Below are positions 11,775 to 45,900 of a stretch of 64,000 bases of DNA, piece by piece. This stretch comes from Symbiodinium natans (Eukaryota > Sar > Dinophyceae > Suessiales > Symbiodiniaceae), in NCBI GenBank assembly GCA_905221605.1, contig CAJNDS010002139.1, positions 248,001-312,000 on the forward strand, read 5' to 3'. The position numbers were made by a program, and so were the translations under genes. Positions within the stretch are counted from its first letter, which is position 1; the number at the start of each line of letters is the position of its first letter. The notes below the pieces were generated by a model. The model worked only from the letters and a program-made list of their open reading frames with translations. It was not told the origin of the DNA and ran no database searches.

Positions 11775-12235
11775 TTTTATATATATATATATACACATAC
11801 ATGCATGCATATGCTGTAATATATTTTTTCATATTGTATGATATTCTACGATATTATATTATATAAAATTGTATTATGTTATCTTATCTTATAATATACT
11901 ATATGTTTTATATTATATACTATATATTATATATTATATATTATATATGAGATATATATTATATTACATTACATTATATTATATTATATTATATTTTTTA
12001 TATATTATACTACACTATATTGGTATATACCATATATTATACTACATTATATTTTATATTATACTATTTTATATTATATGATACTAGATTATATATTATA
12101 TTATACTATATTCTATTATATTATATTATGAAATTATAATATATTATATATTTATATATTATATATTAATATATTACATTATACTATGTTTATATAGACA
12201 TACATCTGTATATATATGTACATCTAAATTCTTAT
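11775..12235. repeat. TA-rich low-complexity sequence
   Basis: Dense TATAT, TTATATTATA and similar words with no coding content. It could be prone to strand opening. Confidence 0.8.
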
Positions 12236-23065: not shown

Positions 23066-23534
23066 GGGGTACTCCTGGCCTGACCCACCCGTGCCAGCGA
23101 GCTGACGCGCGTGCGCGAATTCAATCTAGAGTGAATTCGACCTGTCTGCGGCTCAGTGGACCTGTAAGCACAGTGAAGGCTTGGGGTTCGAGATTCGGGG
23201 AGCTTCGGACGCAGGATTTGAGGTTTCAAGCTGGATGGAAGGTTCCGTGGCATTCGGGGGCTCCATGCCTTGTCCTGAGGATGACAGGTACTTAGCAACC
23301 TCACTACTGCGGCGTCACGAGCTCGCTCCTAAACATTCCTAAACCCCAAACCCTGACTCGTGCACGTGCACCTCAAGACGCAAGACTCGAAACTCCGAAA
23401 ATCCCAGGCCCGAAAAGCCCTGAGCCCACCTGCACCTGTGCCATAGCGGCTGGGCTTGTGCAAGTGCCTGGGAAGGTGCACGCTGGAACCAAGGGATGAA
23501 AGGGGGAGCTTGGAGGCCTCGGAGGCTCATACCA

Positions 23535-26500
23535 GCTCCAGCATTAGAGTCCGGGTGGCAAATTGCCGGGTCCGTGTTGCAGGGCCACCACTTGTAGCCT
23601 TCGGCACACCGGGCGCAGTTCCTGGGCACTGAACCCCAAACCAGGGCTCGCGCAGGGTGCGGTGTTCTTGAGCCTTGGGGTTCCTGAGCCTTGGGGAGTC
23701 CATTGCGGCGCTGAGGGATCGTCATTTATCAGACTTTTATCAGGGATCTAGGGTTTCCAGTTTCTAGGGCTTACAGGCTCTATAGGGTCTAGGCCCTAGG
23801 CGGCTTGGTCGAACCGCTCAACTACCAATGCTTCCAGGTGCGCCGCTGTAGCACCATTGGGCGGCAAGCCCTGGCGGCCAAGAGGTCGCTCAAAGACTCT
23901 ATCTCAAACGCCCCCCAAAACCTAAGCCCTACCAGATATAAACCCCTCCAAGAGTGACCGCGAGTTGGAATCCTGGAGGTCCAACTTCACATGTGTAAAG
24001 CCCGCAGTAAACCCTGACACCCCCCTACCCCTGCCTGCGTGGGGAGGCACACCATCCCGCCCGGCGTGGTGGACGCGGCAGGCGTCGTGGTCGGCGGCAT
24101 GGTTCGGCTGGTTGTGGAGGTTGTGGAGGTTGTTGCCTGGGGTTTGCGGGTGGCTTTTGCCAGTGCAGGGCTGGGAGGTTCACGGGTAGGCCTCGGGCTT
24201 TCAAGCCTTGCTCAAGCCTCGAGAAACTCCTGAAGCCGACCAAACACCTCCCACGCACACGACAACATCACGACAACATCACGACAACATCCCCCGGCTC
24301 GAAGAATTTCCAAGACTGCACTGAGGTTTCGGCCGGAGGCCCGCATTCACAGAGCTGGCCGGCACAGGGCCAGGCCTAGATTCATCGGGATGTGCCGGGC
24401 CGTTGCAGGGAATGTCAGGTCTGGGACGACCCTATACGACCGTAGCCACCCATGCATGTGACAGGATTCCGGGGGCGGGGCGGGAAGGGGAGGGAAGGAA
24501 GGGGGTTGGCAAGGGGAGAGGGGGCCTGCGAGGGCAGCTGGTCGCAGGCAGCCGCGCACTTCGCATCGCTGCCGCCGAAGCGGAGGCCGTCGGCCGTGGC
24601 GCGGCAGCCCTTGATGGTTTGGTGTTTATGTTGAGGGCCCCTTGAGGGCTTCTGGGTGAAGGTTTCAGGGCCTGTGAGCATAGGGTCAAAGGGAGCTTCC
24701 TGCAATGAGCGATGTCAGTTCAGCCTTGGTGGCAGGGTCAAACCATCAATGGCGGGGCTTGTCATGCTTGTGTCACGTATTCCAAGCGAGGGGAACTCCT
24801 GCGAGTAAGGTTTGTAGGACTCTATGCTCAAGAGCACTGGGGGCTGCTAGGCCCAACTGCACGGAGGCACATAGGCGCGTGCACGCTTGTTCTTCACAAG
24901 CAAGCCAAGCTTGCACGTGGCACGGCACGCTCGAGCCTTACAACAAAACGGTATTCCCATGTCCTCGCAGCCCCAACGAGCATTAACCAGTACCTCAAAG
25001 CAACCACCTTTGCAAGAATACCTGATGCCAAGCTGCAGCTGCGACTGTAGTCGTGGTGGGCATCGTGGTTGATGTGGTTGTGGCCCCCTGCGTGGTCGTC
25101 GTGGTGGTTGCGGCCGTCGTGCCTGCACTCATAGAGCGACCCCCAAAACCCAAACACTCTCCCTGCAGAGGCATACGGTGGCTGCCGCAGAGCTGCTTGA
25201 AGGTGGCGCGGAGAGGCAGGAGCCGACATGGTCGTAGGCAACCTTAGGTTGGTCTGCGTGGCCCTCAAGTGGCCCGAGATGGCACAAAGTCGCCCAAAGG
25301 TGGCCCCACGTGGCCCCAGATGGGCCAAGCGGCCGAGCGGTCATTCACGAAAGAGAGGATGCAGCGCGTCTGCTCTTCGAAGCTCAGATCGAAGAGGTCT
25401 TGGCCGCAGCCGGGAATGACGCCTCTGAGGTGAGCTCGAAAGGAGTTCAGGGGTTTAGGGATGTGGGCTGAGATGAGGGGAGGGCTGAGGGTTTGGAGCT
25501 CAGGGTTCGGGGTTGAATGAGGGGATCTTGGCAAGTGGGGAAAATCCGACCGAGCGGCCGTTCGTCAGCTTGTACCAGGCCGCCACGGACCGCCAGCCGT
25601 ACTGTGGGCTCTGGAAGAACCTTCGTGTCGGATGCGCCCCCGCCTGAACCTTGCAAGCCTGACTTCAAGATCTGAAGCAGCCAGACACCCCGCCTCAAGT
25701 CCTAGATGTCCCACATTCCAGCAGCTTCCAACACTCTTTACCTTCCCTTGCACAGCGCGACTCGTCTTCCCAGAGCACTTTGCGCCGAGATGCTGGTACT
25801 GGTCGGGAGCCATGGCATTGAACTGCGAGATGAAGTTCCTGGGTTTTCAGGTTCCTGAAACTCACCAGGGTATACCAGGGTGCAAAGGAGCTCTGCAGCA
25901 CAAAGAGCAGCAAGGATAAACATGAAGAACACACATCCCACAGAGGCCCGGGTGAACTCCGCCGACACCGAGCGGCATGCCGGGGAAGAGCTGGTCCATG
26001 TCCTGCGGGGCCGCGAGGGCCAGGGTGCAGGCGTGTCGCACCTTCTCCCGCAAGCCTCAGCCCTATATGGATTCAAGGAAGCGCCGGTCCTCCACGTTCG
26101 TCCGCCAGTTGCCGGGGATCATGTGGATGAGCCCGGCACCTGGAATCCGCCCGTTCAAAACAAGCACAAGAGCAGATGATGAAAGACGACACCCAAGCCC
26201 ACCCCAAGCCCCATCCCATCCCATGCCATGCAGATTTCACGGTCTTCCAGGTCGGGTGGCCTCCCGAGCCTTGGGGGCAATATTTGTGGAACAATGTGGA
26301 ACATGCGGTGGCACCTCCATCCCTTGGCTGGTAGACGGTTGAGAAATAGGCCGTCTCGAAGGTGATCTCAGCGAGGAACGTCGGGTTAAACGGCTTTCTT
26401 CGCAGCTCGATCTTCATGTGTCGCCACGTTGCACATCTCTATTTTTTACGGCAGACATGATCATAGAATTTCACTGCGCTAACGTCTCTCAAGGGGCACT

Positions 26501-27130
26501 CTCCGTCCCTGGCTTTAGAGAACCCAGGCCAAACCCATGTCCAGTTTAACAACTGCAGGAGCCTGTGCCAGCATCTTGTGGATGGCCGTCTGGTCGTTGC
26601 ACTTGTTCACGGCAGGGTCTGACAGCATCTCGTTCCTGCGGGATCTGAGGTTCGAGAGTTTGCACACGCCTCGGAGAGCTTAGAGAGTGTAGAGAGCTTC
26701 TAAGGCTTAGGCGCCACTCGGGGACCAAGGTTTCAGAGGAGGATCGCCCGCGGGCTGTTGCGGGAAACGTCTGGAGTGTCGAGCTGTCACATGGAGCAAG
26801 CAGATCCCATTGCGCCCGAAATCGCCCAGACCCGGTCTGCATGGCCAACAGTCGGTTTCTGCGAGGTGCGTTGGCTGACACAAGTCTGGCTGCAAACTTG
26901 AAAGGGTCGCGGAGCACAGTGCGCAAAAGAAGCCTTGCCCAAGTCGGCCAAGGCTCAAAGCATCCACCCACTCCTGGTGCAGGATTTGCAGTGTTGAATT
27001 CGGGACACTTTCAGCCACTCTCGCCCCAGCCTTGGAGCAGTAGAACCCATACTCGTATCCAGACGGGCCGGTCACGTCCTTGTCCTGCGTGCATACGATC
27101 AGGAACGCGGTGGCTGCTTCTCGCGAGGCA
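23535..27130 (-). CDS. GH19/lysozyme-like domain with Thr-rich linkers and Cys-rich modules, copy A
   Basis: Likely the C-terminal half of the gene starting at 34735. Exons read in order: about 27120-27010 (AATAFLIVCTQDKD, GYEYGFYCS); about 26640-26565 (MLSDPAVNKCNDQTA); about 26381-26315 (FLAEITFETAYFSTVYQP); 26139-26090 (GLIHMIPGNWRTNVE); from 26002 (DMDQLFPG); about 25833-25785 (FNAMAPDQYQHLGAK); 25620-25559 (QYGWRSVAAWYKLTN); 25422-25334 (GVIPGCGQDLFDLSFEEQTR); and 25242-25177 (YDHVGSCLSAPPSSSS). The Glu in FETAYF sits where lysozyme/GH19-fold enzymes have their catalytic acid. Thr-rich linkers follow at 25122-25022 and 24136-24035. Cys-rich modules lie at about 24615-24526 (SDAKCAAACDQLP) and 23621-23535 (CARCAEGYKWWPCN). 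Probable role: hydrolysis of chitin- or peptidoglycan-like chains outside the cell. The C-terminal end is unresolved. Confidence 0.65.
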
Positions 27131-28304
27131 AGGTGTGAATTCAGGACTCTTGTTTCACCACACGAGCAAAATCCAGAATCCGTCCATTTTCCTGGTAATG
27201 GCAACATCAACATGTGGCACGAATGCCGGATTACGCGAATGGTCAAGTTCAGCTGTTTTCGTGAATGTTCTAGAATACCTTCAGTACCAGCCATCCCTTT
27301 GAACCTCACCATCGCTGCTTACCTGTTGTTCACAACCCGGTTTTGAAGTGTGCGCCTAACTTACAAATTCAATTTGAAAAACGAAGCAAAGCCGACAAAC
27401 GTTCAACGATTAAGTAAGATCATGAAAGGACATGTTGGCAAGAGAGCCTTGTCACTTTCATGATTGCACAACAACTTTGCCTACTAAAGAATGTTTTTTG
27501 CCGCAAACCTGCTATGTTCAGCTGCAATCCGTTCTTTCAAAGCCGCAAGCGAAAAAGCGTTGCTACAGGTACGTTAACGGTCGACCTTTGGGTTCAGCGA
27601 CTCACTGGCACTCATAGTCTCAAAGGGGGACTCTTCCAGACGTTGGCTTGCCGGCCTTTGTGAAACTGCTTGAGTTCTCCAGGCTAGCTCTGTGTTTGGA
27701 TAGCTTGGTAAGGACTAGAGTTTGGGGTTCAAGGGTGTTTGGATGCTGTTTGGATGTTTGCGGTGTGGCGGCTATACGTAGGCCCAGCCCGAGTGCACCT
27801 GCGAAACATCGCACTTCGGCCAGTATGTAGATTTGCCTCGGCCCGGGGATAAGCCCGAAACACACAGTCCTCTCAGGTGCGGGGCTCGTTTCTGTCTTCA
27901 GGGGCCAGGGGGCCAAAGAAGGTGTCAGGAGCATTTTTGGGGCGCTTAGATGTGCTGAGGCAGCCCAGCAGCCGTTGATGCACGTCAGGGTCTCCTGGGT
28001 AACCTGGGCTTGTGGGTGGTGACCCGAGTGTTTGGGGATGTCTTAGGGGTTGCATGTGGTTGCGAGTAGCTTTTCAGACTACAAGCTGCCCGACAGCCTG
28101 CAACCAACCGGAGCCTCAAGGCCAGCAACTTCAGGAGACAGAGACCTGACTGAAGCCACGCTCCAGCCAAAAAAAATCAAAAAAACACATGAAAAAAAGC
28201 TCCGAAACCGAAGCACTGCGCCTCGAACCCCGAACCCTCAAAACGTCCAAGTCCCCGCACGTCAACACATGCGTTTCCCTCCAGCTTCTCCAGCCCAAGC
28301 GCAC

Positions 28305-30124
28305 AGGTTGGTGTTGAGCCGGTGGACGTCGTTGCACCTCCGGTTGTCGTCGCGCCTGCTATTTGGGCTAAGATTGGATTCTGCCCCGAGACCGCAGTGC
28401 GGGGATCAAGCATCCGTTGTCTGGCCCTGAAGTGAAGTGTGCCCCTATACCAAAAATGACACCTGTTTACGTGCTAGGTGTGACTTCTACAGACGTGCAT
28501 CTGCCAAGTATCTACTCGCGACTGGTATGCTACAGTGCGGGTCCACAGTGTCTTGCAATTGCTGCTCTCTAGTTGTCGTTCATGGCCTCCTCTGGTTGTC
28601 GTAGTCGTCGTAGTAGGGGCACTGGTGACCGTGGCGGTCGTGCCACCGCCGGAGACAATCTGGAGGTCACGGGGGCAGGCTTAGCCAACCAACAATGTAC
28701 AAAACAGGCGGTTCTGCCGGCTTCGTGAACGCACAGCATGTTTCAGACCCCTTTCACAATACGCAAACTCTGCCCCGAGTCGTCATCGCAAGAAAGATTT
28801 AAGAGCAGATCAAGGGATCATCAAGGTGCAGGCGCAACGGTTGAGAACAGGAAGTCGACTGCACGAAATCACATCTTGCCCAGCTATACACACCGTTAGA
28901 CTACCGTTAGACTGCCGTTAGACTACCGTCAGACTACTGTGAGACTACCGTTTAGAGGCATCCCTCGAGAAAGGATGAGCCCACCCCTCTCTTGCCAGAA
29001 ACTGACCAGTGGAATCGTGCAAACCCAGACTAAAACAGCTGGGGATCCACTGAGGAGTGGGCCTGGATGTCCGCACAGTTCCGAAATTCCTCGCCGCAGC
29101 CGCAGCGGTTGCAGCCTGCTTCGTTTTGGCCCTCATGCCTCAATATGTACACCTGCACCGCGGCACAACCCATCCTCAAAGATGCGGCCCGCGCCATGAA
29201 TCAGAAGTGTGCAGAGGTGTGCAGCGGTGGTTGGTGAAGTACCTGAAATCCCTCCCATCCCCGAAACCTGAAACAATGCCGGGCTCAAATCCGGAAAAAG
29301 TGCGATGCCTCCACCAGGACAAGTGTTGCCTGAGCTTGAGGCGTCCGGCGGGGCCAGGGGTGGTGTGGCTTTGTGCCCCGGGAACTGTTTCGGGGGCGTG
29401 GACTGCACACAGATGGTTCTGGTCTGGGGCTTGGATACGGTCTTGTAGTGTTGAAGGCTCAAGGCTTTGTAGTTTAGCGAGGGTGTACAGGTTTGAGGCC
29501 CAAGGTCAAGGTGCCGACGCCCCAGTCGCTCGGTCTGTAGCCATTGCTGCTGAGTTCCTGAACACCAACGCTGCAACACCAAAGCTCGGTGTCGGCTAGT
29601 GTTTTCGGGCAAGGCTTCACAACTGATGTGCGCATCATACATATCGAAGCTTGCCGTTTTCCAAGCACTCATGCATAACAAGGACGAGGAATCGACCTGA
29701 CTGAATGCAGCGGCAGTCCTCCCCGAGCCACTTGAACGTTGCCGGCCCGTCCATCCCGATCCCACCCCCACAGCCTTGTGCCCGAGCCCTTTCACTACTG
29801 CAAGATTTCACAGCGACCTTGGTGGAAGGACGCCTATGCAGCATCGCACATGTGTTGCACTGGCCCAGTACTGCAGCAGGAACGCATCTCGGGCAGGAGT
29901 GCCCACACGCTTGTGCAGTACCACAAGTATGTCCGAAAAGTGCCGGACATAAGACATGGACAAATAAATCCCAAAGAGAGCCCTTCAAGGGACAAAAACA
30001 CCCCACAGCCGAACCCATCACCTGAGCCCTTCCCCCATCTCACAGCTGCCTGCGCGAAACAGCCATAGTCAGGCGCAGGAATGCAGCTATTCGCCGACCA
30101 CCACCTGCAAAAACACAGACAGAC

Positions 30125-30155
<31 letters not shown>

Positions 30156-33100
30156 CCTTGAACACTGCGGCTGTGAGTGACATGTTTTGGGTTTGGGAGG
30201 GGGGCTTAGTGGCTTGGCCTGCCCCGTAGGTGCCGGTACACTAGCCGGGGGGGTGCGCTGATGGACTGGTACTCCACGTTGGAGAAGAGGGTGTAGATGG
30301 CAGGATATGTTAGGCCCAAAGCTCTGAGGCTGCGCCCCAAAATCCTGAATCCTGACCCGGTCAGTCCCGACAGACGCCCTTCAAGACGAGTGCCCAAGCA
30401 CACCCGGAAGCCTCCCAAAAAAAGGCTTGTGCCTTTGGGTTTCTAGCTTGTCCCCAGTCTTTCCCCTGAACCTACACCCTGGTCCTAATCCTCGACCTCG
30501 GCGACAGCATGCATGGTGCGAAACTGGCTGCTGAAGAAAACGCAGAGCAGCGGAGCGTGGACACGAGGCATGTCGTGTCATGTTTGGGGCGTGTAGAGCT
30601 TGCCTGCGGGACTAGGCCGCGTGGGCAGTGTTGCCTTGCTGCAGGCCATCTCAGCCCTGAGATTCCCGAACTCCGACAAGGGCCTCCACTGCAGCGTGCA
30701 GGCGGTGCACTGCAGGCCGACCGGCACCTTCCTCGGAGGATTGGGGTTGCCAGCAAGGGCCCTTGAACAAAACAGCCTGAAAACAAACCCTGCACAAAAC
30801 CCAAAATCCTCAAACACCCTTTGCTTGCAAACCCAACCCCTAGAAAGCCCCTCGACCCCAGGCGGCCCAGCGTCAGGTAAAAGGTGTGCAAGTCCTGCCC
30901 GGAGGGAGAGAAGCCACCTTCCCAAGCGGGCATCTGGAAAGCATGCTGAAGTTTGCGTTTAGGGGGCAGGGGTGCAGGGACTAAGCCGAGTTCGCGAAGC
31001 CACGAAAGCCATCATGCACCTGAAATGGGTGACTGGTTGGCACCATTGCAAACACCAGGTACAGTCAGATCCCGAAGTCATAACAATTGCTAATTGCAGT
31101 GGGGGAACCATCCCCCCCAAGGAACTGCGCGTTATGACTTATTTCTGGGAAGTCAAAAATTTGGCTTTCCCCCCAATGAGCTGCTGTGATTCAAGCACAC
31201 AAAACAAGTCCAGACATGTAACTTTTATGCCCAGTCCCCTGTCAAGGATCCTCGGGATTGTCTGAGGATCTCAGCTCTAGGAGGTATCCCCCCCTAAAAT
31301 TCCAGGAATTTTAGGAATATGTTTTGGGGGGGGGGGGGGTGTACATTCTTCCGGGGCCCTGCAGATCCAGGAAATAGAAGTCGTATCATTCAGCGGTCAC
31401 ACTGGGGATTTGCCTTGTCTAACATGTGACTGAAAACAATGTGCTGGTTTTCTTTTGCCAGAAGCCATTTCGGTGGGGGGCTCGTGGGCTGGTGGTTGTG
31501 ACAGCAGTCGGACCCTAAACTGTTGGCTTTGAAAAACAAACAGAATCTGTAAACATTCACAAATCGCACGTTGGGGTATGGCCAGCCGTGTCGCCGCACG
31601 TATCGCCGCGGCCCGCACAACCCTCAACCCAAAACGCGGAGCGCGCAAGGCTGCACAAAACAATGCGATTGGTTACTGTGTCACCAGCGGTTCGTTGGGG
31701 GAAGCGAAATATTATGAGTTATGAGTTCCAACTATTGTTTTTCCGTGCGAAAAGGGCCTATTGCATATGCACCGTACCACAAGGCATCTTATATCGGACA
31801 TGTCTGGGCCAGTCCTACGCGAGCCAGGATTAGAATGGATTAGGCCGGGCACATGTTCCAAAACACGTCACACAATCCTGGTGATATCAGAGCTTGAATA
31901 CCTGCAATCTCGGCACCTTATACATCACCACTTTTCCCCCTAAGTACACTCCCCCCCCCCCAATTATACATCAGTTGCATGGGGATCTTCTCCCCAAGTG
32001 ATTGCAAGCAACACAGGAAAAAATGTTATGTTTTCGGGGTTCGACTGTACCCATCCGGACCCGTCCGGGGACCTGGTGGAAGGTAGAAGCGCTCAGGGTG
32101 CCGCCTGACAGGGCGTAGTTCTGGGGAGCTTGTCGGCTTACGTGGGTTAGCTGAATAATGCAGTCTTGTTCTCTTCGGCGCTTGACGACGGGGCTTTCCT
32201 CGGGCCTCTATATGTTTGCTTGTTACCACCATCAGCCCCTCGGAATCACGTTAGAACCCCCTCTTCAACTCGACTCTGAGGAGTTGCCGGGGCACGTGTC
32301 CAGCGGCTGGCAGCCCGCCCGTCTGTCGTTCGACCCGCAGTCCGTGAGGCCCGCCTCCTGGGGGTTTAGGGTTCTGGGGTGGCGAGGGATTGGACTTAGA
32401 ACTTCAGAGCCTTTAGGCCTTTGCGGAGGTCGCGTCTCGAGGTTAGGGGTGCTTGGTGCTTGCTGCTGGCCGGGACCTTCCAGTGCGAACTGCCTTCCTC
32501 TTCCACGGCCATCTTACATAGATGCTTGGCACTTACGTATGTATTCATGCATGCAGAACGCACTGTCGTGTGTTGCCACGCGGGCAAGGACTAAGAATTT
32601 CAGTGGAACACGTCACGCGGGATCGGTGGCTGGGTGGACGCATGAGCTGAGACGACTGCTCGTGATAGTAGCAATTAACGAGGTCAAAATATTCTGGTGA
32701 GCGCGTATGTGTGGAGAGCCACGCGCGTGTACATGCGTGCGTGCATGCATGTACAAGCATGTAACAGTATGTGTATTGGTGAACCTGTATCTCTCTGCAT
32801 ATACATGGAATTACACATGTGTGCCCTTCTACGGGCAGGCATTTAGTTACATGTATCTGATGCATGTGCATGTTGTTACAAGTCTCTGTGTGTACGCGCT
32901 TGTATGCAAATCCAGAATATGCGTGCGCATGCACGTGCGTGCAAACAGACGGCTGGCACTGTAACAGTGGACTGCCGTTGCAAGCCGTTGTAAGTATGGT
33001 GCTGCAGGCATGTTCAACTGTGCTGGCATGCATCGACGACACGTGGACTACACTCTTGATCCTGGAGGCTAAGTGCCACAGGCCGTTCTGTGCTACCCTG

Positions 33101-34735
33101 CCTGCGGGCTGGCACGCTCCAGGATCCACTTGTCCAAGCAGCTCTGTGCATTGGCCAAAGATGATGAAATCTGCTGCTCGCCTCGGCATAGGTAGGAGTT
33201 CTGGAGGTTCTGGTTGCAGCTTCAATCAACTGTCGCCTCAGGGCTTCCTTTCCTGGGCGAGTTCCGACTCCGAGAAGTTGGGCACAGCAATTGCTAGTGA
33301 CCGGGCTTGCGGGGTGTTTCATGCTTGCGCCTGCTGCGAAAACAATATTCATCAGTTCCGAATCGAACCAAGCCACACACGCTGAACTCGAAATGCCCCT
33401 TGTGGTGGGCAGTGATGCGGATGGTGACCTCCACAATCGTTCCTGATGTCCACGTCCTGCCAAACAACTCGTCCCTGCACCGGGTTGTAGGACGAGGCTG
33501 GCAGGGAATTCGGGCATTCAGGCCGTGTGTGATTTTTCGTGTTGAGGGTTGCATCCCAAAACCAATGGGCAGTACATAGCCTGACATGCCAAATCCGCCA
33601 ACGAACACTTCTTCCGGTTCTTCCGGGGGCTTGAACCTCACGGGTGGGCCGCCAGCATTCACGTAGTTGCCTGAGTGACTGAATGAGAGTGAGAGAGAGA
33701 CTGAATGAGAGAGAGAGAGAGAGAGCGAGAGAGCGACTGAATGAGAGAGAGAGAGAAAGAAAAAAGTGAGAAAAAAAACAGAGACCGAGAGAGTGAGAGA
33801 GCGCGCGGGGAGCGGAATGTTGTCCCCCTCTACCCTCCAGAGAGGAGGAGGACTGCGAAAAAACGCAATGGCGTGGATCACTCAGAGAGAGAGAGAGAGA
33901 GCAACGGTGGAATCCGACATGCGTGGGTTGAATCCGACAGCCTCCTATGGTTGGAAGGGAAAGATGCGGAGAGACGTAGAGAGACGTAGAGAGCGACTTC
34001 ACGAAAAGATTGCCAGAACCCGAATAAACGAACCTTCACACCCTTAGCCTGAAACCCGACAGAAGCCAACAGAATACTTGAGCCACGCGTCTGTCGGAGG
34101 GCCATTGGTTGCCATCGCCACAAATGCCGTTGCCATTGCCGCAGTGCGGGCAATAGCCTGAAGTTGCAAAGTGCTTTTGGAACGTGGAGGGGCCTAGGGT
34201 TGTGGAAGGGTCTAGTGAGTCTAGTAGGCCAACACTTGGTACACGCAGGACAACCAAACACTTAGCGACTTAGCGATTTTTGCGGGCAGAGATGTCAAGA
34301 ACACACAGCGTCCCAAACAACACAAATAAGTCCGAAACAGTTTCTCTGCCCTGAGCCCTCAAGCCCTGGAGCCTTGAGGCTTCGATTTGACAGTACTTGG
34401 CACTCTGGGCGGCCCCCGAAACCCAAAGCCCAACCCGACATTGGCATCGGGCGGCCGTTCTTCGGCCCGGAGTCGACGTTGCGGGCGGCTGGCTCGACCA
34501 TGAAGCCATGCCCTGGCGTGCTGAAACTCCCAGGGGCCTTCGGGGTTTTTCCGATGGCAAGACTTGTTGAGTCTCGGAAGTTTAAGGCTTCAGGTGCGAG
34601 CTTTGTATCGATGGCTTTCACGACGAAGCAGGACCCCACAGCACTAGCACCCAAACCGAAGCACCCCTAAACCAGCCCCCAAACCGTGCCAACCAGCAAC
34701 AACAGCAAACCGGCACGGAGCGCCCCAGGCGCCAT
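28305..34735 (-). CDS. secreted AA15-like lytic polysaccharide monooxygenase domain, copy A
   Basis: Exon 1 (34735-34677) encodes a signal peptide (MAPGALRAGLLLLLVGTVWG). Exon 2 (from about 34511) begins HGFMVEPAARN, so cleavage would expose His1 of the copper histidine brace. Then come 34157-34092 (CGNGNGICGDGNQWPSD), 33670-33640 (NYVNAGGPPV), 33456-~33378 (TWTSGTIVEV, then TAHHKGHFEF with the second brace His), about 33180-33103 (SCLDKWILERASPQ), 32357-32296 (CGSNDRRAGCQPLDT), 32104-32073 (HPERFYLPP), about 30732-30684 (VGLQCTACTLQW) and 29115-29063 (CGEEFRNCADIQ). Thr-rich linker exons follow at 28659-28592 and 28355-28305. LPMOs of this type cleave chitin or cellulose oxidatively. No stop or new signal peptide separates this part from the lysozyme-like exons downstream, so one fused protein is likely. 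One or two exons between 30684 and 29115 are unresolved. Confidence 0.75.
28891..28957. repeat. 11-bp intronic minisatellite, unit ACCGTTAGACT
   Basis: About six copies in the intron between the last AA15-like exon and the first Thr-rich linker exon. The same array occurs in unit B near 41720-41786. Confidence 0.85.
30118..30156. repeat. (GA)n / (CAGA)n microsatellite
   Basis: A CAGA run followed by about 14 GA dinucleotides inside an intron of the copy A gene. The same tract lies at 42947-42985 in unit B with no obvious length change. Confidence 0.85.
31447..31763. other. ~317-bp segment present in unit A intron, absent from unit B
   Basis: Unit B joins GTGCTGG directly to TGCATATGCAC, skipping this stretch. 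In A the segment is intron sequence without recognised content. A neighbouring unit A stretch (31075-31140) has a 10-base inverted pair, AAGTCATAAC and GTTATGACTT, around an AT-rich core, suggestive of a small foldback element. Confidence 0.6.
33680..33800. repeat. GA-rich microsatellite, length-variable between units
   Basis: Runs of GAGA interrupted by ACTGAATGA. The equivalent stretch in unit B (46062-46150) differs in length and interruptions, so it is one of the fastest-changing parts of the duplication. It lies in the intron between AA15-like exons 3 and 4. Confidence 0.8.
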
Positions 34736-35146: not shown

Positions 35147-36370
35147 CCACGACACAGCGGCGTAGGCGGCCAGGGTATGCCGGCGCAGCTTTGGTGCAAG
35201 CGCACGCACGCCCCGGGGCAAACCCAAGGAATGCTGTAGGCCACCACCCCGCAGAGATCCTAAAGCCGCCCCGTGCGAGGCATCTCCCTGCGGAGGTGGG
35301 ACCGTGAGCATCCCAAGCTACTGTCGGTGGCTGTGCCAGGTCACTGGCATTCTTTTCGATCTGGCCCAGCGCAGGTGACTGCAACAGGCGTTCAATGTGC
35401 ACCCTACTAACTTCAACCATGCCTAAAGCAATCACCCAAAACATCCAGCGCATGTTCGAAAGCACCCAGCAGCCCGCTACTTTTGCAAGGGCTGGGACTC
35501 GACTGTACACATGCCAACTATACAGCATGCGCCTGGAGAACGACAAGCACATACACAAACATACACGCACGCAGCTTAGTCAGCTGTCAGAAGCTGTGCG
35601 GGCGATCAGGTTCCCGACAGTGGGACGGAGGATGCAAAATACGCGGCCAAGTTCTCGAATCGACGCCCGGCCTTTGACCAATCTTGTGGCTTTCTCTCGT
35701 AGCCGACTTCCCAATTCTACAGGAGCAGTATGGCATGCTCAGAACTCTCAACGATGTAGGAGAGTCATCTCAACATCTCAAACGTTGCTCGGCGAAGCTT
35801 CTCATTGCTAGTTCTCGGCATAGTTTTTTAACAGGCTCAGAACACCGAAGAGCTTAGGCGCTCAAAGGCTTTGGGGTTTTTAACGGCCTAGGTGCTTGAC
35901 CTTAGGGGGTACTCCTGGCCTGACCCACCCGTGCCAGCGAGCTGACGCGCGTGCGCGAATTCAATCTAGAGTGAATTCGACCTGTCTGCGGCTCAGTGGA
36001 CCTGTAAGCACAGTGAAGGCTTGGGGTTCGAGATTCGGGGAGCTTCGGACGTAGGATTTGAGGTTTCAAGCTGGATGGAAGGTTCCGTGGCATTCGGGGG
36101 CTCCATGCCTTGTCCTGAGGATGACAGGTACTTAGCAACCTCACTACTGAGGCGTCACGAGCTCGCTCCTAAACATTCCTAAACCCCAAACCCTGACTCG
36201 TGCACGTGCACCTCAAGACGCAAGACTCGAAACTCCGAAAAGCCCTGAGCCCACCTGCACCTGTGCCATAGCGGCTGGGCTTGTGCAAGTGCCTGGGAAG
36301 GTGCACGCTGGAACCAAGGGATGAAAGGGGGAGCTTGGAGGCCTCGGAGCCTTCTGCTCGGCTCATACCA

Positions 36371-39300
36371 GCTCCAGCATTAGAGTCCGGGTGGCAAATT
36401 GCCGGGTCCGTGTTGCAGGGCCACCACTTGTAGCCTTCGGCACACCGGGCGCAGTTCCTGGGCACTGAACCCCAAACCAGGGCTCGCGCAGGGTGCGGTG
36501 TTCTTGAGCCTTGGGGTTCCTGAGCCTTGGGGAGTCCATTGCGGCGCTGAGGGATCGTCATTTATCAGACTTTTATCAGGGATCTAGGGTTTCCAGTTTC
36601 TAGGGCTTACAGGCTCTATAGGGTCTAGGCCCTAGGCGGCTTGGTCGAACCGCTCAACTACCAATGCTTCCAGGTGCGCCGCTGTAGCACCATTGGGCGG
36701 CAAGCCCTGGCGGCCAAGAGGTCGCTCAAAGACTCTATCTCAAACGCCCCCCAAAACCTAAGCCCTACCAGATATAAACCCCTCCAAGAGTGACCGCGAG
36801 TTGGAATCCTGGAGGTCCAACTTCACATGTGTAAAGCCCGCAGTAAACCCTGACACCCCCCTACCCCTGCCTGCGTGGGGAGGCACACCATCCCGCCCGG
36901 CGTGGTGGACGCGGCAGGCGTCGTGGTCGGCGGCATGGTTCGGCTGGTTGTGGAGGTTGTGGAGGTTGTTGCCTGGGGTTTGCGGGTGGCTTTTGCCAGT
37001 GCAGGGCTGGGAGGTTCACGGGTAGGCCTCGGGCTTTCAAGCCTTGCTCAAGCCTCGAGAAACTCCTGAAGCCGACCAAACACCTCCCACGCACACGACA
37101 ACATCACGACAACATCACGACAACATCCCCCGGCTCGAAGAATTTCCAAGACTGCACTGAGGTTTCGGCCGGAGGCCCGCATTCACAGAGCTGGCCGGCA
37201 CAGGGCCAGGCCTAGATTCATCGGGATGTGCCGGGCCGTTGCAGGGAATGTCAGGTCTGGGACGACCCTATACGACCGTAGCCACCCATGCATGTGACAG
37301 GATTCCGGGGGCGGGGCGGGAAGGGGAGGGAAGGAAGGGGGTTGGCAAGGGGAGAGGGGGCCTGCGAGGGCAGCTGGTCGCAGGCAGCCGCGCACTTCGC
37401 ATCGCTGCCGCCGAAGCGGAGGCCGTCGGCCGTGGCGCGGCAGCCCTTGATGGTTTGGTGTTTATGTTGAGGGCCCCTTGAGGGCTTCTGGGTGAAGGTT
37501 TCAGGGCCTGTGAGCATAGGGTCAAAGGGAGCTTCCTGCAATGAGCGATGTCAGTTCAGCCTTGGTGGCAGGGTCAAACCATCAATGGCGGGGCTTGTCA
37601 TGCTTGTGTCACGTATTCCAAGCGAGGGGAACTCCTGCGAGTAAGGTTTGTAGGACTCTATGCTCAAGAGCACTGGGGGCTGCTAGGCCCAACTGCACGG
37701 AGGCACATAGGCGCGCGCGCTTGTTCTTCACAAGCAAGCCAAGCTTGCACGTGGCACGGCACGCTCGAGCCTTACAACAAAACGGTATTCCCATGTCCTC
37801 GCAGCCCCAACGAGCATTAACCAGTACCTCAAAGCAACCACCTTTGCAAGAATACCTGATGCCAAGCTGCAGCTGCGACTGTAGTCGTGGTGGGCATCGT
37901 GGTTGATGTGGTTGTGGCCCCCTGCGTGGTCGTCGTGGTGGTTGCGGCCGTCGTGCCTGCACTCATAGAGCGACCCCCAAAACCCAAACACTCTCCCTGC
38001 AGAGGCATACGGTGGCTGCCGCAGAGCTGCTTGAAGGTGGCGCGGAGAGGCAGGAGCCGACATGGTCGTAGGCAACCTTAGGTTGGTCTGCGTGGCCCTC
38101 AAGTGGCCCGAGATGGCACAAAGTCGCCCAAAGGTGGCCCTACGTGGCCCCAGATGGGCCAAGCGGCCGAGCGGTCATTCACGAAAGAGAGGATGCAGCG
38201 CGTCTGCTCTTCGAAGCTCAGATCGAAGAGGTCTTGGCCGCAGCCGGGAATGACGCCTCTGAGGTGAGCTCGAAAGGAGTTCAGGGGTTTAGGGATGTGG
38301 GCTGAGATGAGGGGAGGGCTGAGGGTTTGGAGCTCAGGGTTCGGGGTTGAATGAGGGGATCTTGGCAAGTGGGGAAAATCCGACCGAGCGGCCGTTCGTC
38401 AGCTTGTACCAGGCCGCCACGGACCGCCAGCCGTACTGTGGGCTCTGGAAGAACCTTCGTGTCGGATGCGCCCCCGCCTGAACCTTGCAAGCCTGACTTC
38501 AAGATCTGAAGCAGCCAGCCACCCCGCCTCAAGTCCTAGATGTCCCACATTCCAGCAGCTTCCAACACTCTTTACCTTCCCTTGCACAGCGCGACTCGTC
38601 TTCCCAGAGCACTTTGCGCCGAGATGCTGGTACTGGTCGGGAGCCATGGCATTGAACTGCGAGATGAAGTTCCTGGGTTTTCAGGTTCCTGAAACTCACC
38701 AGGGTATACCAGGGTGCAAAGGAGCTCCACAAAGAGCAGCAAGGATAAACATGAAGAACACACATCCCACAGAGGCCCGGGTGAACTCCGCCGACACCGA
38801 GCGGCATGCCGGGGAAGAGCTGGTCCATGTCCTGCGGGGCCGCGAGGGCCAGGGTGCAGGCGTGTCGCACCTTCTCCCGCAAGCCTCAGCCCTATATGGA
38901 TTCAAGGAAGCGCCGGTCCTCCACGTTCGTCCGCCAGTTGCCGGGGATCATGTGGATGAGCCCGGCACCTGGAATCCGCCCGTTCAAAACAAGCACAAGA
39001 GCAGATGATGAAAGACGACACCCAAGCCCACCCCAAGCCCCATCCCATCCCATGCCATGCAGATTTCACGGTCTTCCAGGTCGGGTGGCCTCCCGAGCCT
39101 TGGGGGCAATATTTGTGGAACAATGTGGAACATGCGGTGGCACCTCCATCCCTTGGCTGGTAGACGGTTGAGAAATAGGCCGTCTCGAAGGTGATCTCAG
39201 CGAGGAACGTCGGGTTAAACGGCTTTCTTCGCAGCTCGATCTTCATGTGTCGCCACGTTGCACATCTCTATTTTTTACGGCAGACATGATCATAGAATTT

Positions 39301-39959
39301 CACTGCGCTAACGTCTCTCAAGGGGCACTCTCCGTCCCTGGCTTTAGAGAACCCAGGCCAAACCCATGTCCAGTTTAACAACTGCAGGAGCCTGTGCCAG
39401 CATCTTGTGGATGGCCGTCTGGTCGTTGCACTTGTTCACGGCAGGGTCTGACAGCATCTCGTTCCTGCGGGATCTGAGGTTCGAGAGTTTGCACACGCCT
39501 CGGAGAGCTTAGAGAGTGTAGAGAGCTTCTAAGGCTTAGGCGCCACTCGGGGACCAAGGTTTCAGAGGAGGATCGCCCGCGGGCTGTTGCGGGAAACGTC
39601 TGGAGTGTCGAGCTGTCACATGGAGCAAGCAGATCCCATTGCGCCCGAAATCGCCCAGACCCGGTCTGCATGGCCAACAGTCGGTTTCTGCGAGGTGCGT
39701 TGGCTGACACAAGTCTGGCTGCAAACTTGAAAGGGTCGCGGAGCACAGTGCGCAAAAGAAGCCTTGCCCAAGTCGGCCAAGGCTCAAAGCATCCACCCAC
39801 TCCTGGTGCAGGATTTGCAGTGTTGAATTCGGGACACTTTCAGCCACTCTCGCCCCAGCCTTGGAGCAGTAGAACCCATACTCGTATCCAGACGGGCCGG
39901 TCACGTCCTTGTCCTGCGTGCATACGATCAGGAACGCGGTGGCTGCTTCTCGCGAGGCA
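36371..39959 (-). CDS. GH19/lysozyme-like domain with Thr-rich linkers and Cys-rich modules, copy B
   Basis: All exons described for copy A are present with the same reading frames. FETAYFSTVYQP ends at 39144, DMDQLFPG begins at 38831, QYGWRSVAAWYKLTN starts at 38454, and GVIPGCGQDLFD starts near 38256. The Thr-rich linker begins near 37950 and YKWWPCN lies within about 36457-36371. A 5-bp intronic deletion near 38727 and an 11-bp insertion just after the YKWWPCN module (near 36350) distinguish it from copy A. If that last stretch is coding, the two proteins have different C-termini. Both copies appear functional from the exons seen. Confidence 0.6.
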
Positions 39960-41133
39960 AGGTGTGAATTCAGGACTCTTGTTTCACCACACGAGCAAAA
40001 TCCAGAATCCGTCCATTTTCCTGGTAATGGCAACATCAACATGTGGCACGAATGCCGGATTACGCGAATGGTCAAGTTCAGCTGTTTTCGTGAATGTTCT
40101 AGAATACCTTCAGTACCAGCCATCCCTTTGAACCTCACCATCGCTGCTTACCTGTTGTTCACAACCCGGTTTTGAAGTGTGCGCCTAACTTACAAATTCA
40201 ATTTGAAAAACGAAGCAAAGCCGACAAACGTTCAACGATTAAGTAAGATCATGAAAGGACATGTTGGCAAGAGAGCCTTGTCACTTTCATGATTGCACAA
40301 CAACTTTGCCTACTAAAGAATGTTTTTTGCCGCAAACCTGCTATGTTCAGCTGCAATCCGTTCTTTCAAAGCCGCAAGCGAAAAAGCGTTGCTACAGGTA
40401 CGTTAACGGTCGACCTTTGGGTTCAGCGACTCACTGGCACTCATAGTCTCAAAGGGGGACTCTTCCAGACGTTGGCTTGCCGGCCTTTGTGAAACTGCTT
40501 GAGTTCTCCAGGCTAGCTCTGTGTTTGGATAGCTTGGTAAGGACTAGAGTTTGGGGTTCAAGGGTGTTTGGATGCTGTTTGGATGTTTGCGGTGTGGCGG
40601 CTATACGTAGGCCCAGCCCGAGTGCACCTGCGAAACATCGCACTTCGGCCAGTATGTAGATTTGCCTCGGCCCGGGGATAAGCCCGAAACACACAGTCCT
40701 CTCAGGTGCGGGGCTCGTTTCTGTCTTCAGGGGCCAGGGGGCCAAAGAAGGTGTCAGGAGCATTTTTGGGGCGCTTAGATGTGCTGAGGCAGCCCAGCAG
40801 CCGTTGATGCACGTCAGGGTCTCCTGGGTAACCTGGGCTTGTGGGTGGTGACCCGAGTGTTTGGGGATGTCTTAGGGGTTGCATGTGGTTGCGAGTAGCT
40901 TTTCAGACTACAAGCTGCCCGACAGCCTGCAACCAACCGGAGCCTCAAGGCCAGCAACTTCAGGAGACAGAGACCTGACTGAAGCCACGCTCCAGCCAAA
41001 AAAAATCAAAAAAACACATGAAAAAAAGCTCCGAAACCGAAGCACTGCGCCTCGAACCCCGAACCCTCAAAACGTCCAAGTCCCCGCACGTCAACACATG
41101 CGTTTCCCTCCAGCTTCTCCAGCCCAAGCGCAC

Positions 41134-42953
41134 AGGTTGGTGTTGAGCCGGTGGACGTCGTTGCACCTCCGGTTGTCGTCGCGCCTGCTATTTGGGCTAA
41201 GATTGGATTCTGCCCCGAGACCGCAGTGCGGGGATCAAGCATCCGTTGTCTGGCCCTGAAGTGAAGTGTGCCCCTATACCAAAAATGACACCTGTTTACG
41301 TGCTAGGTGTGACTTCTACAGACGTGCATCTGCCAAGTATCTACTCGCGACTGGTATGCTACAGTGCGGGTCCACAGTGTCTTGCAATTGCTGCTCTCTA
41401 GTTGTCGTTCATGGCCTCCTCTGGTTGTCGTAGTCGTCGTAGTAGGGGCACTGGTGACCGTGGCGGTCGTGCCACCGCCGGAGACAATCTGGAGGTCACG
41501 GGGGCAGGCTTAGCCAACCAACAATGTACAAAACAGGCGGTTCTGCCGGCTTCGTGAACGCACAGCATGTTTCAGACCCCTTTCACAATACGCAAACTCT
41601 GCCCCGAGTCGTCATCGCAAGAAAGATTTAAGAGCAGATCAAGGGATCATCAAGGTGCAGGCGCAACGGTTGAGAACAGGAAGTCGACTGCACGAAATCA
41701 CATCTTGCCCAGCTATACACACCGTTAGACTACCGTTAGACTGCCGTTAGACTACCGTCAGACTACTGTGAGACTACCGTTTAGAGGCATCCCTCGAGAA
41801 AGGATGAGCCCACCCCTCTCTTGCCAGAAACTGACCAGTGGAATCGTGCAAACCCAGACTAAAACAGCTGGGGATCCACTGAGGAGTGGGCCTGGATGTC
41901 CGCACAGTTCCGAAATTCCTCGCCGCAGCCGCAGCGGTTGCAGCCTGCTTCGTTTTGGCCCTCATGCCTCAATATGTACACCTGCACCGCGGCACAACCC
42001 ATCCTCAAAGATGCGGCCCGCGCCATGAATCAGAAGTGTGCAGAGGTGTGCAGCGGTGGTTGGTGAAGTACCTGAAATCCCTCCCATCCCCGAAACCTGA
42101 AACAATGCCGGGCTCAAATCCGGAAAAAGTGCGATGCCTCCACCAGGACAAGTGTTGCCTGAGCTTGAGGCGTCCGGCGGGGCCAGGGGTGGTGTGGCTT
42201 TGTGCCCCGGGAACTGTTTCGGGGGCGTGGACTGCACACAGATGGTTCTGGTCTGGGGCTTGGATACGGTCTTGTAGTGTTGAAGGCTCAAGGCTTTGTA
42301 GTTTAGCGAGGGTGTACAGGTTTGAGGCCCAAGGTCAAGGTGCCGACGCCCCAGTCGCTCGGTCTGTAGCCATTGCTGCTGAGTTCCTGAACACCAACGC
42401 TGCAACACCAAAGCTCGGTGTCGGCTAGTGTTTTCGGGCAAGGCTTCACAACTGATGTGCGCATCATACATATCGAAGCTTGCCGTTTTCCAAGCACTCA
42501 TGCATAACAAGGACGAGGAATCGACCTGACTGAATGCAGCGGCAGTCCTCCCCGAGCCACTTGAACGTTGCCGGCCCGTCCATCCCGATCCCACCCCCAC
42601 AGCCTTGTGCCCGAGCCCTTTCACTACTGCAAGATTTCACAGCGACCTTGGTGGAAGGACGCCTATGCAGCATCGCACATGTGTTGCACTGGCCCAGTAC
42701 TGCAGCAGGAACGCATCTCGGGCAGGAGTGCCCACACGCTTGTGCAGTACCACAAGTATGTCCGAAAAGTGCCGGACATAAGACATGGACAAATAAATCC
42801 CAAAGAGAGCCCTTCAAGGGACAAAAACACCCCACAGCCGAACCCATCACCTGAGCCCTTCCCCCATCTCACAGCTGCCTGCGCGAAACAGCCATAGTCA
42901 GGCGCAGGAATGCAGCTATTCGCCGACCACCACCTGCAAAAACACAGACAGAC

Positions 42954-42984
<31 letters not shown>

Positions 42985-45900
42985 CCTTGAACACTGCGGC
43001 TGTGAGTGACATGTTTTGGGTTTGGGAGGGGGGCTTAGTGGCTTGGCCTGCCCCGTAGGTGCCGGTACACTAGCCGGGGGGGTGCGCTGATGGACTGGTA
43101 CTCCACGTTGGAGAAGAGGGTGTAGATGGCAGGATATGTTAGGCCCAAAGCTCTGAGGCTGCGCCCCAAAATCCTGAATCCTGACCCGGTCAGTCCCGAC
43201 AGACGCCCTTCAAGACGAGTGCCCAAGCACACCCGGAAGCCTCCCAAAAAAAGGCTTGTGCCTTTGGGTTTCTAGCTTGTCCCCAGTCTTTCCCCTGAAC
43301 CTACACCCTGGTCCTAATCCTCGACCTCGGCGACAGCATGCATGGTGCGAAACTGGCTGCTGAAGAAAACGCAGAGCAGCGGAGCGTGGACACGAGGCAT
43401 GTCGTGTCATGTTTGGGGCGTGTAGAGCTTGCCTGCGGGACTAGGCCGCGTGGGCAGTGTTGCCTTGCTGCAGGCCATCTCAGCCCTGAGATTCCCGAAC
43501 TCCGACAAGGGCCTCCACTGCAGCGTGCAGGCGGTGCACTGCAGGCCGACCGGCACCTTCCTCGGAGGATTGGGGTTGCCAGCAAGGGCCCTTGAACAAA
43601 ACAGCCTGAAAACAAACCCTGCACAAAACCCAAAATCATCAAACACCCTTTGCTTGCAAACCCAACCCCTGGAAAGCCCCTCGACCCCAGGCGGCCCAGC
43701 GTCAGGTAAAAGGTGTGCAAGTCCTGCCCGGAGGGAGAGAAGCCACCTTCCCAAGCGGGCATCTGGAAAGCATGCTGAAGTTTGCGTTTAGGGGGCAGGG
43801 GTGCAGGGACTAAGCCGAGTTCGCGAAGCCACGAAAGCCATCATGCACCTGAAATGGGTGACTGGTTGGCACCATTGCAAACACCAGGTACAGTCAGATC
43901 CCGAAGTCATAACAATTGCTAATTGCAGTGGGGGAACCATCCCCCCCCAAGGAACTGCGCGTTATGACTTATTTCTTGGAAGTCAAACATTTGGCTTTCC
44001 CCCCAATGAGCTGCTGCGATTCAAGCACACAAAACAAGTCCAGACATGTAACTTTTATGCCCAGTCCCCTGTCAAGGATCCTCGGGATTGTCTGAGGATC
44101 TCAGCTCTAGGAGGTATCCCCCCCTAAAAATTCCAGGAATTCTAGGAATATGTTTTGGGGGGGGGGGGGGTGTACATTCTTTTGGGGCCCTGCAGATCCA
44201 GGAAATATGTGCCCGGTCAAGGAAACAAGAAGTCGTATCATTCAGCGGTCACACTGGGGATTTGCCTGGTCTAACCGGTGACTGAAAACAATGTGCTGGT
44301 GCATATGCACCAAGTACCACAAGGCATCTTATATCGGACATGTCTGGGCCAGTCCTATGCGAGCCAGGATTAGAATGGATTAGGCCGGGCACATGTTCCA
44401 AAACACGTCACACAATGCTGGTGATATCAGAGCTTGAATACCTGCAATCTCGGCACCTTATACATCACCACTTTTCCCCCTAAGTACACTCCCCCCCCCC
44501 AATTATACATCAGTTGCATGGGGATCTTCTCCCCAAGTGATTGCAAGCAACACAGGAAAAAATGTTATGTTTTCGGGGTTCGACTGTACCCATCCGGACC
44601 CGTCCGGGGACCTGGTGGAAGGTAGAAGCGCTCAGGGTGCCGCCTGACAGGGCGTAGTTCTGGGGAGCTTGTCGGCTTACGTGGGTTAGCTGAATGCAGT
44701 CTTGTTCTCTTCGGCGCTTGACGACGGGGCTTTCCTCGGGCCTCTATATGTATGCTTGTTACCACCATCAGCCCCTCGGAATCACGTTAGAACTCCCTCT
44801 TCAACTCGACTCTGAGGAGTTGCCGGGGCACGTGTCCAGCGGCTGGCAGCCCGCCCGTCTGTCGTTCGACCCGCAGTCCGTGAGGCCCGCCTCCTGGGGG
44901 TTTAGGGTTCTGGGGTGGCGAGGGATTGGACTTAGAACTTCAGAGCCTTTAGGCCTTTGCGGAGGTCGCGTCTCGAGGTTAGGGGTGCTTGGTGCTTGGT
45001 GCAGAATTTCAGTGGAACACGTCACGCGGGATCGGTGGCTGGGTGGACGCATGAGCTGACGAGGTCAAAATATTCTGGTGAGCGCGTATGTGTGGAGAGC
45101 CACGCGCGTGTACATGCGTGCGTGCATGCATGTACAAGCATGTAACAGTATGTGTATTGGTGAACCTGTATCTCTCTGCATATACATGGAATTACACATG
45201 TGTGCCCTTCTACGGGCAGGCATTTAGTTACATGTATCTGATGCATGTGCATGTTGTTACAAGTCTCTGTGTGTACGCGCTTGTATGCAAATCCAGAATA
45301 TGCGTGCGCATGCACGTGCGTGCAAACAGACGGCTGGCACTGTAACAGTGGACTGCCGTTGCAAGCCGTTGTAAGTATGGTGCTGCAGGCATGTTCAACT
45401 GTGCTGGCATGCATCGACGACACGTGGACTACACTCTTGATCCTGGAGGCTAAGTGCCACAGGCCGTTCTGTGCTACCCTGCCTGCGGGCTGGCACGCTC
45501 CAGGATCCACTTGTCCAAGCAGCTCTGTGCATTGGCCAAAGATGATGAAATCTGCTGCTCGCCTCGGCATAGGTAGGAGTTCTGGAGGTTCTGGTTGCAG
45601 CTTCAATCAACTGTCGCCTCAGGGCTTCCTTTCCTGGGCGAGTTCCGACTCCGAGAAGTTGGGCACAGCAATTGCTAGTGACCGGGCTTGCGGGGTGTTT
45701 CATGCTTGCGCCTGCTGCGAAAACAATATTCCTCAGTTCCGAATCGAACCAAGCCACACACGCTGAACTCGAAATGCCCCTTGTGGTGGGCAGTGATGCG
45801 GATGGTGACCTCCACAATCGTTCCTGATGTCCACGTCCTGCCAAACAACTCGTCCCTGCACCGGGTTGTAGGACGAGGCTGGCAGGGAATTCGGGCCATT

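What the first reader, a model, noticed from the sequence alone, without database searches (positions are those of the whole stretch)
23535..34735. AA15-like LPMO and GH19/lysozyme-like domains apparently fused in one secreted gene
Minus-strand exons encode, in order, a signal peptide, HGFMVEPAARN (His1 of a copper histidine brace), TAHHKGHFEF (second His), CTACTLQW and GEEFRNCADI as in AA15-type LPMOs. Then come Thr-rich linkers, and then FETAYFSTVYQP, GLIHMIPGNW, QYGWRSVAAWYKLTN and VIPGCGQDLF as in lysozyme/GH19-fold proteins of fungi and protists, followed by Cys-rich YKWWPCN-type modules. One protein would pair oxidative and hydrolytic cleavage. No stop, start or second signal peptide was seen between the halves, but 28300-27130 is not fully resolved.
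Basis: partly seen in the sequence, partly recalled or inferred. Interest (0 to 1): 0.85.

Follow-up and report, generated by a model that had tools for sequence, protein, structure and literature searches.

The report
Copper-enzyme gene fused to orphan domain
A probable dinoflagellate alga appears to carry, twice in tandem, one many-exon gene for a secreted protein that joins a copper enzyme for cutting tough sugars to a second, unclassified domain; such fusions are known in other algae and moulds, but the second domain here matched no known family.

Summary
On the minus strand, 34735-23533 resolves into 26 in-frame exons (28 with two candidate bridging exons, 29 with a tentative last exon) giving one open product of up to 690 aa: short signal peptide, AA15-type LPMO domain (PF03067, 40.1 bits on the excised domain; nearest solved structure Thermobia AA15, E 4e-8), Thr-rich linker, a ~218-aa domain, and two Cys-rich modules between Thr-rich linkers. 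The unresolved stretch 28300-27130 shows no obvious new signal peptide and has two candidate exons that fit in frame, so one gene is favoured; there is no RNA proof. What fails is the naming of the second half: no match in Pfam, NCBIfam, PHROGs or PDB, no confirmed relative in the collections scanned, and the GH19 GRG-x-x-Q-L block is not found; a GH19 motif test gave 18.7 against 74-112 for seven real members. Only one motif (FLAEITFETAYF) resembles GH19. AA15-GH19 fusions were already reported in Oomycota and Haptophyta (PMC5823890). I file this as a new variant: an AA15 LPMO fused to an orphan, perhaps lysozyme-like, domain.

The parts
34690..34735 (-). E1: start codon and hydrophobic signal peptide MAPGALRAGLLLLLVG (GC donor; exact donor uncertain)
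   Evidence: hydrophobic 8-mer score 3.07; 16 of the 938 ATGs scanned on this strand reach 3.0
29063..34512 (-). E2-E11: AA15-type LPMO domain, mature N-terminus HGFMVEPAARN. Exons 34512-34435, 34157-34092, 33670-33596, 33442-33369 (ITAHHKGHFEF, second His), 33170-33102, 32354-32296, 32104-32051, 30776-30690, 30104-30022, 29115-29063 (GEEFRNCADI, axial Phe). 3' end of E4 and 5' end of E9 uncertain
   Evidence: PF03067 40.1 bits, 5msz E 4e-8, paralogs, exon table
28261..28659 (-). E12 28659-28590 and E13 28355-28261: Thr-rich linker, then start of the second domain (CALGLEKLEGNACVD)
   Evidence: ranks 3 and 1 among the 8 intron segments scoring about 5 or more by codon usage (best segment per frame per intron); they fit acceptor, donor and phase
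25339..26635 (-). E14-E21: orphan domain with FLAEITFETAYFSTVYQP, GAGLIHMIPGNW, YGWRSVAAWYKLTN, VIPGCGQDLF. Exons 26635-26542, 26405-26315, 26139-26090, 26002-25974, 25890-25866, 25822-25742, 25610-25559, 25422-25339
   Evidence: exon table, codon usage; no family match
25022..25122 (-). E22: second Thr-rich linker
24331..24609 (-). E23 24609-24526 and E24 24375-24331: Cys-rich module 1 (6 Cys), GCRATADG...WPCAGQLCECG
23533..24136 (-). E25 24136-24021: third Thr-rich linker; E26 23621-23533: Cys-rich module 2 (NCARCAEGYKWWPCNTDPAIC)
23153..23274 (-). E27, tentative last exon with TGA stop (GQGMEPPNATEPS...LCLQVH*)
   Evidence: in frame in both copies; no homology support
35993..47122 (-). copy B: tandem duplicate of the whole gene; same exons; 2 differences in 2073 nt of inferred coding sequence

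Best explanation
One tandemly duplicated gene of a eukaryote, most likely a dinoflagellate, encodes a secreted modular protein of about 690 aa. After signal-peptide removal the N-terminal His and the second His of TAHHKGHFEF bind copper, and the AA15-type LPMO domain cuts a crystalline beta-1,4-glycan oxidatively; the axial Phe points to chitin rather than cellulose (inferred). Thr-rich, probably glycosylated linkers tether a ~218-aa domain of unknown family and two Cys-rich modules that probably bind the same substrate (inferred). The second domain may be a lysozyme-like hydrolase with Glu of FETAYF as acid, but that step is a guess. Shown: the exon strings, the open frame, the LPMO match, the duplication. 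Inferred: splicing, secretion, activity, substrate.
For: PF03067 over the whole profile at 40.1 bits and 5msz E 4e-8; both brace histidines; 40 and 43% identity to AA15-like paralogs of the same genome. Single gene: 26 exons join in frame in both copies with 1 difference in 1852 nt against 35 substitutions and 16 indels in 8867 intron nt (Fisher p 0.014 for substitutions, 0.09 for indels); two candidate bridging exons in phase; of 21 ATGs between the halves 15 could be scored and none leads a peptide as hydrophobic as the signal peptide (best 2.36 against 3.07); the duplicated unit, about 35028-23066, takes in both halves together and starts 293 bp before E1. Second half coding. Dinoflagellate: donors GT 12, GC 8, GA 6 of 26, and AG|G at 19 of 25 acceptors against 32% of all AG sites, though I preferred AG|G when choosing.
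Against: No transcript. With GT, GC and GA donors allowed, in-frame joins are easy to find, and several junctions (E1, E4, E9, E14-E18, E24-E27) have alternatives. The exon conservation test is not significant for the second half alone (p 0.18), and the stretch between the halves is identical in both copies (0 of 1623), so it says nothing there. Two of the 11 second-half exons scored (E18, E24) prefer another frame. The ATG scan reads unspliced DNA only, so a signal peptide split by an intron would be missed. The full-length product gave no PF03067 row. No spliced-leader sequence is in the window.
Confidence: 0.7

Rival explanations
1. Two neighbouring genes on one strand: an AA15 LPMO gene ending after E13 (reading on to a stop near 28180) and a second gene starting near E14.
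For: Unspliced, the E13 frame reads to a stop near 28180; the interval E13-E14 is the longest intron of the 26-exon model, 1623 nt; an ATG lies in E14; dinoflagellate genes are often packed in one direction (recalled).
Against: The second gene would lack a visible signal peptide although its product has Thr-rich linkers and Cys-rich modules; two in-phase candidate exons fill the gap; E13 already holds the Thr linker plus CALGLEKLEGNACVD.
Confidence: 0.18
2. The second domain is a true GH19 chitinase, as in the AA15-GH19 fusions reported in Oomycota and Haptophyta.
For: Order of motifs FLAEITFETAYF / GAGLIH / WRSVAAWYK recalls FLAQ..HET / GRG.IQL / .R.A.WYW; the first block scores 17.9, within the 14-33 of seven real GH19s; hmmsearch of three small GH19 profiles against this one sequence gave E 0.016, 0.15 and 0.027 at 0.9, -2.4 and 0.5 bits, the two better ones from that block; the fusion is known elsewhere.
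Against: No PF00182 row at E 10, no GH19 in PDB, hhalign no better than shuffles, best GRG-block score at GAGLIH -4.0 against 33-52 in members, three-block score 18.7 against 74-112 for members and reached by 771 of 20000 shuffles and 1 of 48 decoy ORFs.
Confidence: 0.1
3. The second domain is not an enzyme but a binding or structural module, and the protein is an LPMO with accessory domains only.
For: No enzyme family matches it; downstream of the AA15-like paralog in L025 lie PAN-like stretches rather than a known catalytic domain (whether they belong to the same product is not shown); 51% of AA15 LPMOs have a C-terminal region of unknown function (PMC8615602, passage).
Against: The FLAEITFETAYF motif with a central Glu resembles the catalytic helix of GH19 enzymes (one block only); size of ~218 aa exceeds usual binding modules (recalled).
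Confidence: 0.4

Closest known systems
AA15 lytic polysaccharide monooxygenases (Thermobia TdAA15A/B; Alveolata members listed in PMC5823890)
   Same: N-terminal His after a signal peptide, second His in the (A)HHxGxFEF motif, CTxCxLQW and GEE[YF]RNCADI at the C-end, many Cys; PF03067 match
   Different: axial Phe in place of Tyr184 of TdAA15A (Phe also occurs in TdAA15B per PMC5823890, passages read); a long C-terminal extension with an unclassified domain
AA15-GH19 and AA15-GH18 fusions of Oomycota, Haptophyta, Chlorophyta, diatoms and tunicates (PMC5823890, passage read)
   Same: AA15 LPMO followed by a further large domain in one secreted protein
   Different: host is probably a dinoflagellate, and the second domain here is not recognisable as GH19 or GH18; those sequences were not compared directly
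AA15 LPMOs with disordered Ser/Thr-rich C-terminal regions and modules of unknown function (PMC8615602; X473/X474 of Saprolegniales, PMC8393829; passages read)
   Same: Thr-rich linkers and short Cys-rich end modules
   Different: two modules of 43 and 35 aa with 6 and 5 Cys; not compared by sequence with X473/X474
GH19 chitinases/lysozymes
   Same: one helix motif around a Glu
   Different: no GRG-x-x-Q-L block, no family match

Membership tests
AA15 / LPMO_10 (PF03067) | profile match above the curated cut-off | tested here: met
   40.1 bits against cut-off 23, profile 1-183/183, excised domain with the shorter E9; 26.6 bits on the rough join; no row for the full-length product
AA15 / LPMO_10 (PF03067) | His1 directly after the signal peptide and a second His (histidine brace) | tested here: met
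   residues present in frame in both copies; His1 as mature N-terminus depends on the E1/E2 junction and on cleavage, both inferred
AA15 / LPMO_10 (PF03067) | nearest solved structure is an AA15 | tested here: met
   5msz, E 4e-8, the only row at E 1 or better; on the rough join 5msz at 5.3e-6 was first of 5 rows, the next at 0.019
AA15 / LPMO_10 (PF03067) | copper binding and oxidative cleavage | not testable with these tools
   needs protein
AA15 / LPMO_10 (PF03067) | CAZy AA15 profile | not testable with these tools
   no CAZy library on hand; placement in AA15 rests on 5msz and PF03067
GH19 | PF00182 profile match | tested here: not met
   no row at E 10; the whole-genome search with PF00182 also found none but its 14 controls did not ring either, so one search is uninformative
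GH19 | three conserved blocks in order (catalytic Glu helix, GRG-x-x-Q-L, A-x-W-[FY]-W) | tested here: not met
   block 1 17.9, block 2 -2.1, block 3 3.0; total 18.7 against 74-112 leave-one-out for 7 GH19s; 771 of 20000 shuffles and 1 of 48 decoy ORFs score as high or higher (which corrects the register of one block row, where the total was 16.3)
lysozyme-like superfamily | fold | not testable with these tools
Single gene | continuous mRNA across both halves | not testable with these tools
   no RNA data; indirect evidence

The most novel reading that the evidence does not exclude
The downstream domain is a so far unclassified, lysozyme-like glycoside hydrolase family of some eukaryotes, here fused to an AA15 LPMO in a dinoflagellate, so that one secreted protein opens a crystalline glycan oxidatively and then hydrolyses it.
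Probability: 0.3. Interest if true: 0.6.

Novelty: new variant of a known kind. Interest (0 to 1): 0.42.

Why it matters
Dinoflagellates are abundant algae, many with cellulosic walls and some living inside corals (recalled). A secreted, duplicated LPMO fusion would be a tool for remodelling their own wall or for attacking the chitin or peptidoglycan of prey, bacteria or host. The orphan domain is a compact, testable candidate for a new carbohydrate-active family. My paper searches for AA15 with Symbiodinium (1 of 1 listed), LPMO with dinoflagellate (9 of 9 listed), dinoflagellate with chitinase and GH19 (5 of 5 listed) and dinoflagellate with CAZyme and auxiliary activities (10 of 20 listed) showed no study of such a dinoflagellate protein among the titles and abstract starts seen; that covers only this open-access library, and PMC5823890 already lists AA15 in Alveolata.

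Tried and rejected
Tried without result: family scans of the second domain (Pfam (two sub-pieces); NCBIfam; PHROGs), PDB (best E 0.23 and 0.32, T-cell receptor chains), tblastn against phages (best E 3, 15 records, unrelated) and plasmids (one record, E 2), related loci in viral contigs and genome contigs: patterns rang in 2, 1, 15 and 41 stretches, none confirmed. GH19 comparison with 7 bacterial GH19s was at the level of shuffles; one search also gave one blastp row (L039 27-165, E 1.4e-4 in a 7-protein set) outside the GH19 catalytic part, which I take as chance. An eighth GH19 locus (L042) was fetched and left out because it sits beside injection-system genes; the eight were picked from 30 rows. 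A spliced-leader relic was sought and not found. Searches for the AA15 paralog and for the C-terminal modules in viral contigs confirmed none. Rfam and tRNA scans of the window gave nothing. Of the 22 AA15 rows, 14 are the two copies, 3 are L025, L031 and L032, and 5 were dropped: four on C2141 (L026-L029; L026 and L027 read, Gly-rich or Cys/Gly-rich frames) and one on C1982 (L030, E 0.31), in which I saw no AA15 motifs.

Rejected: a first model in which E13 joins E14 directly by a GC donor was replaced by one with E13a and E13b, because two of the three best codon-usage segments in the 25 introns lie in that interval; both remain possible. A join of E17 to E18 at CAG|AGC was dropped because a 5-nt deletion in copy B (intron 83 against 78 nt) removes that acceptor, while GAG|CTCC is kept in both. 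The 203-aa unspliced ORF at about 27318-26710 has no family match and is taken as chance apart from E13b.
Full report
What is there. The window is G000:C1827:248001-312000 of a 759-Mb genome in 2543 contigs. Reading the minus strand I placed 26 exons from 34735 to 23533 that join into one open frame of 617 aa; with two bridging exons and a tentative last exon the product is 690 aa and ends at a TGA. Donors are GT 12, GC 8, GA 6 of 26; 19 of 25 acceptors read AG|G against 32% of all AG sites in the region, though I favoured AG|G where I had a choice. GA donors and tandem duplication are described for dinoflagellates (PMC8045281, passages read). With the genome size this makes a dinoflagellate likely; no spliced-leader sequence is in the window and the whole-genome check did not complete.

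The LPMO half. The excised domain matches PF03067 at 40.1 bits over the whole profile (26.6 bits on a rough join), and the only PDB row up to E 1 is the Thermobia AA15 5msz (E 4e-8). These two calls, 52 and 53, used a shorter E9 than the exon table. The 617-aa product gave no PF03067 row. The alignment puts the second His of TAHHKGHFEF on the APH of 5msz and the Phe of GEEFRNCADI on the Tyr of EEYRNCADI, which by my count from the printed coordinates is Tyr184, the axial residue named in PMC5823890. [quoted passage not shown] Two other AA15-like loci of this genome, L025 and L032 (L031 repeats part of L032), are 43 and 40% identical over hand-joined pieces and helped to fix exon borders. Downstream of the AA15-like part, L025 has a Ser/Thr-rich stretch and, after a stop that may lie in an intron, two PAN-like stretches (best E 4.4e-4, 20.5 bits, below the Pfam cut-off).

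The duplication. Copy B lies at 47122-35993. The two units, about 35028-23066 and 47415-35906, are 98-99% identical in the three large aligned blocks. In the 1852 nt of the 26 exons there is 1 difference, against 35 substitutions in 8867 intron nt and 16 indels (Fisher p 0.014 for substitutions, 0.09 for indels); for the second half alone p is 0.18, and the interval between the halves is identical in both copies. With the bridging and last exons there are 2 differences in 2073 nt. In the whole genome the second domain was found only in these two copies at E 1 or better, exon by exon, with a rough join as query (12 matches, all on C1827).

One gene or two. E13 carries the Thr-rich linker and the start of a Cys-containing stretch. 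Between E13 and E14 lie 1623 nt. A codon-usage scan over the 25 introns, keeping the best segment per frame and intron, gave 8 segments of about 5 or more; ranks 1 and 3 are in this interval, and both fit splice sites and phase. In the other 7728 intron nt only one recorded segment reaches the lower of these two scores, so two in 1623 nt is more than expected, but the numbers are small and the scoring was trained on my own model. Of 21 ATGs there, 15 could be scored and none starts a peptide as hydrophobic as the signal peptide (best 2.36 against 3.07); the scan reads unspliced DNA. Codon usage learnt from E1-E11 prefers the stated frame in 9 of 11 second-half exons scored. I take one gene as likely, about 0.8.

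The second domain (residues 289-506). Pfam gave only chance rows (best E 0.041 and 0.067, below cut-off), NCBIfam and PHROGs none, PDB only T-cell receptor rows at E 0.2 or worse; phages, plasmids, viral and prokaryotic contigs gave no confirmed relative. Against seven bacterial GH19 proteins hhalign was no better than shuffles (7, 33 and 14 of 60 shuffles scored as high for the three profiles); hmmsearch of the same profiles gave E 0.016, 0.15 and 0.027 for this single sequence at 0.9 bits or less, the two better ones from the Glu-helix block. A three-block GH19 test, blocks set from the GH19s, gave 18.7 for the domain; left-out GH19s gave 74-112; 771 of 20000 shuffles and 1 of 48 decoy ORFs reached 18.7 or more (a corrected run). 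Only the Glu-helix block looks GH19-like. It is therefore not filed as GH19. A likeness to lysozyme-like proteins of fungi is a recollection, not a test.

Known or new. PMC5823890 (passages read) reports AA15 in Alveolata and AA15 fused to GH18 (Chlorophyta, Bacillariophyceae, tunicates) or GH19 (Oomycota, Haptophyta). PMC8615602 (passages) reports AA15 with GH9, GH18, WSC and many unknown C-terminal regions; PMC8393829 (passages) describes Cys-rich X473/X474 modules on AA15 and on chitinases. So an AA15 fusion is not new as a kind; the host group and the orphan second domain are what differ. Paper searches used.

Noticed in passing
35906-47415 (-): Tandem copy of the whole gene, about 99% identical, with GA changed to GC at one donor (E3) and a 5-nt deletion just before E18.
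   Followed up: yes
54150-56684 and 61259-64000: A second recent tandem duplication (98-99% in the two large blocks), with an ORF in each (55730-56335 and 63046-63651, minus); the first was scanned and ends in a cofilin/ADF-like stretch (PF00241 E 0.0014, below cut-off).
   Followed up: partly
21226-21814 and 35235-35824: An 87% identical 0.6-kb repeat lies downstream of copy A and between the copies; by its identity probably older than the gene duplication.
   Followed up: no
2004-2654 (-): A 216-aa ORF with a CCCH zinc-finger-like stretch (recalled motif); Pfam gave only sub-threshold rows.
   Followed up: partly
10001-12000 and 58001-60000: A+T-rich islands (GC 0.295 and 0.372) with internal repeats in a window of about 55% GC.
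   Followed up: no
L025 (G000:C2499): AA15-like locus with a Ser/Thr-rich stretch and PAN-like stretches downstream; perhaps another modular LPMO of the same genome.
   Followed up: partly
L031 and L032 (G000:C298 and C1889): Third AA15-like locus; reading frames at the start of contig C298 repeat those of C1889, so one may be an assembly duplicate.
   Followed up: no
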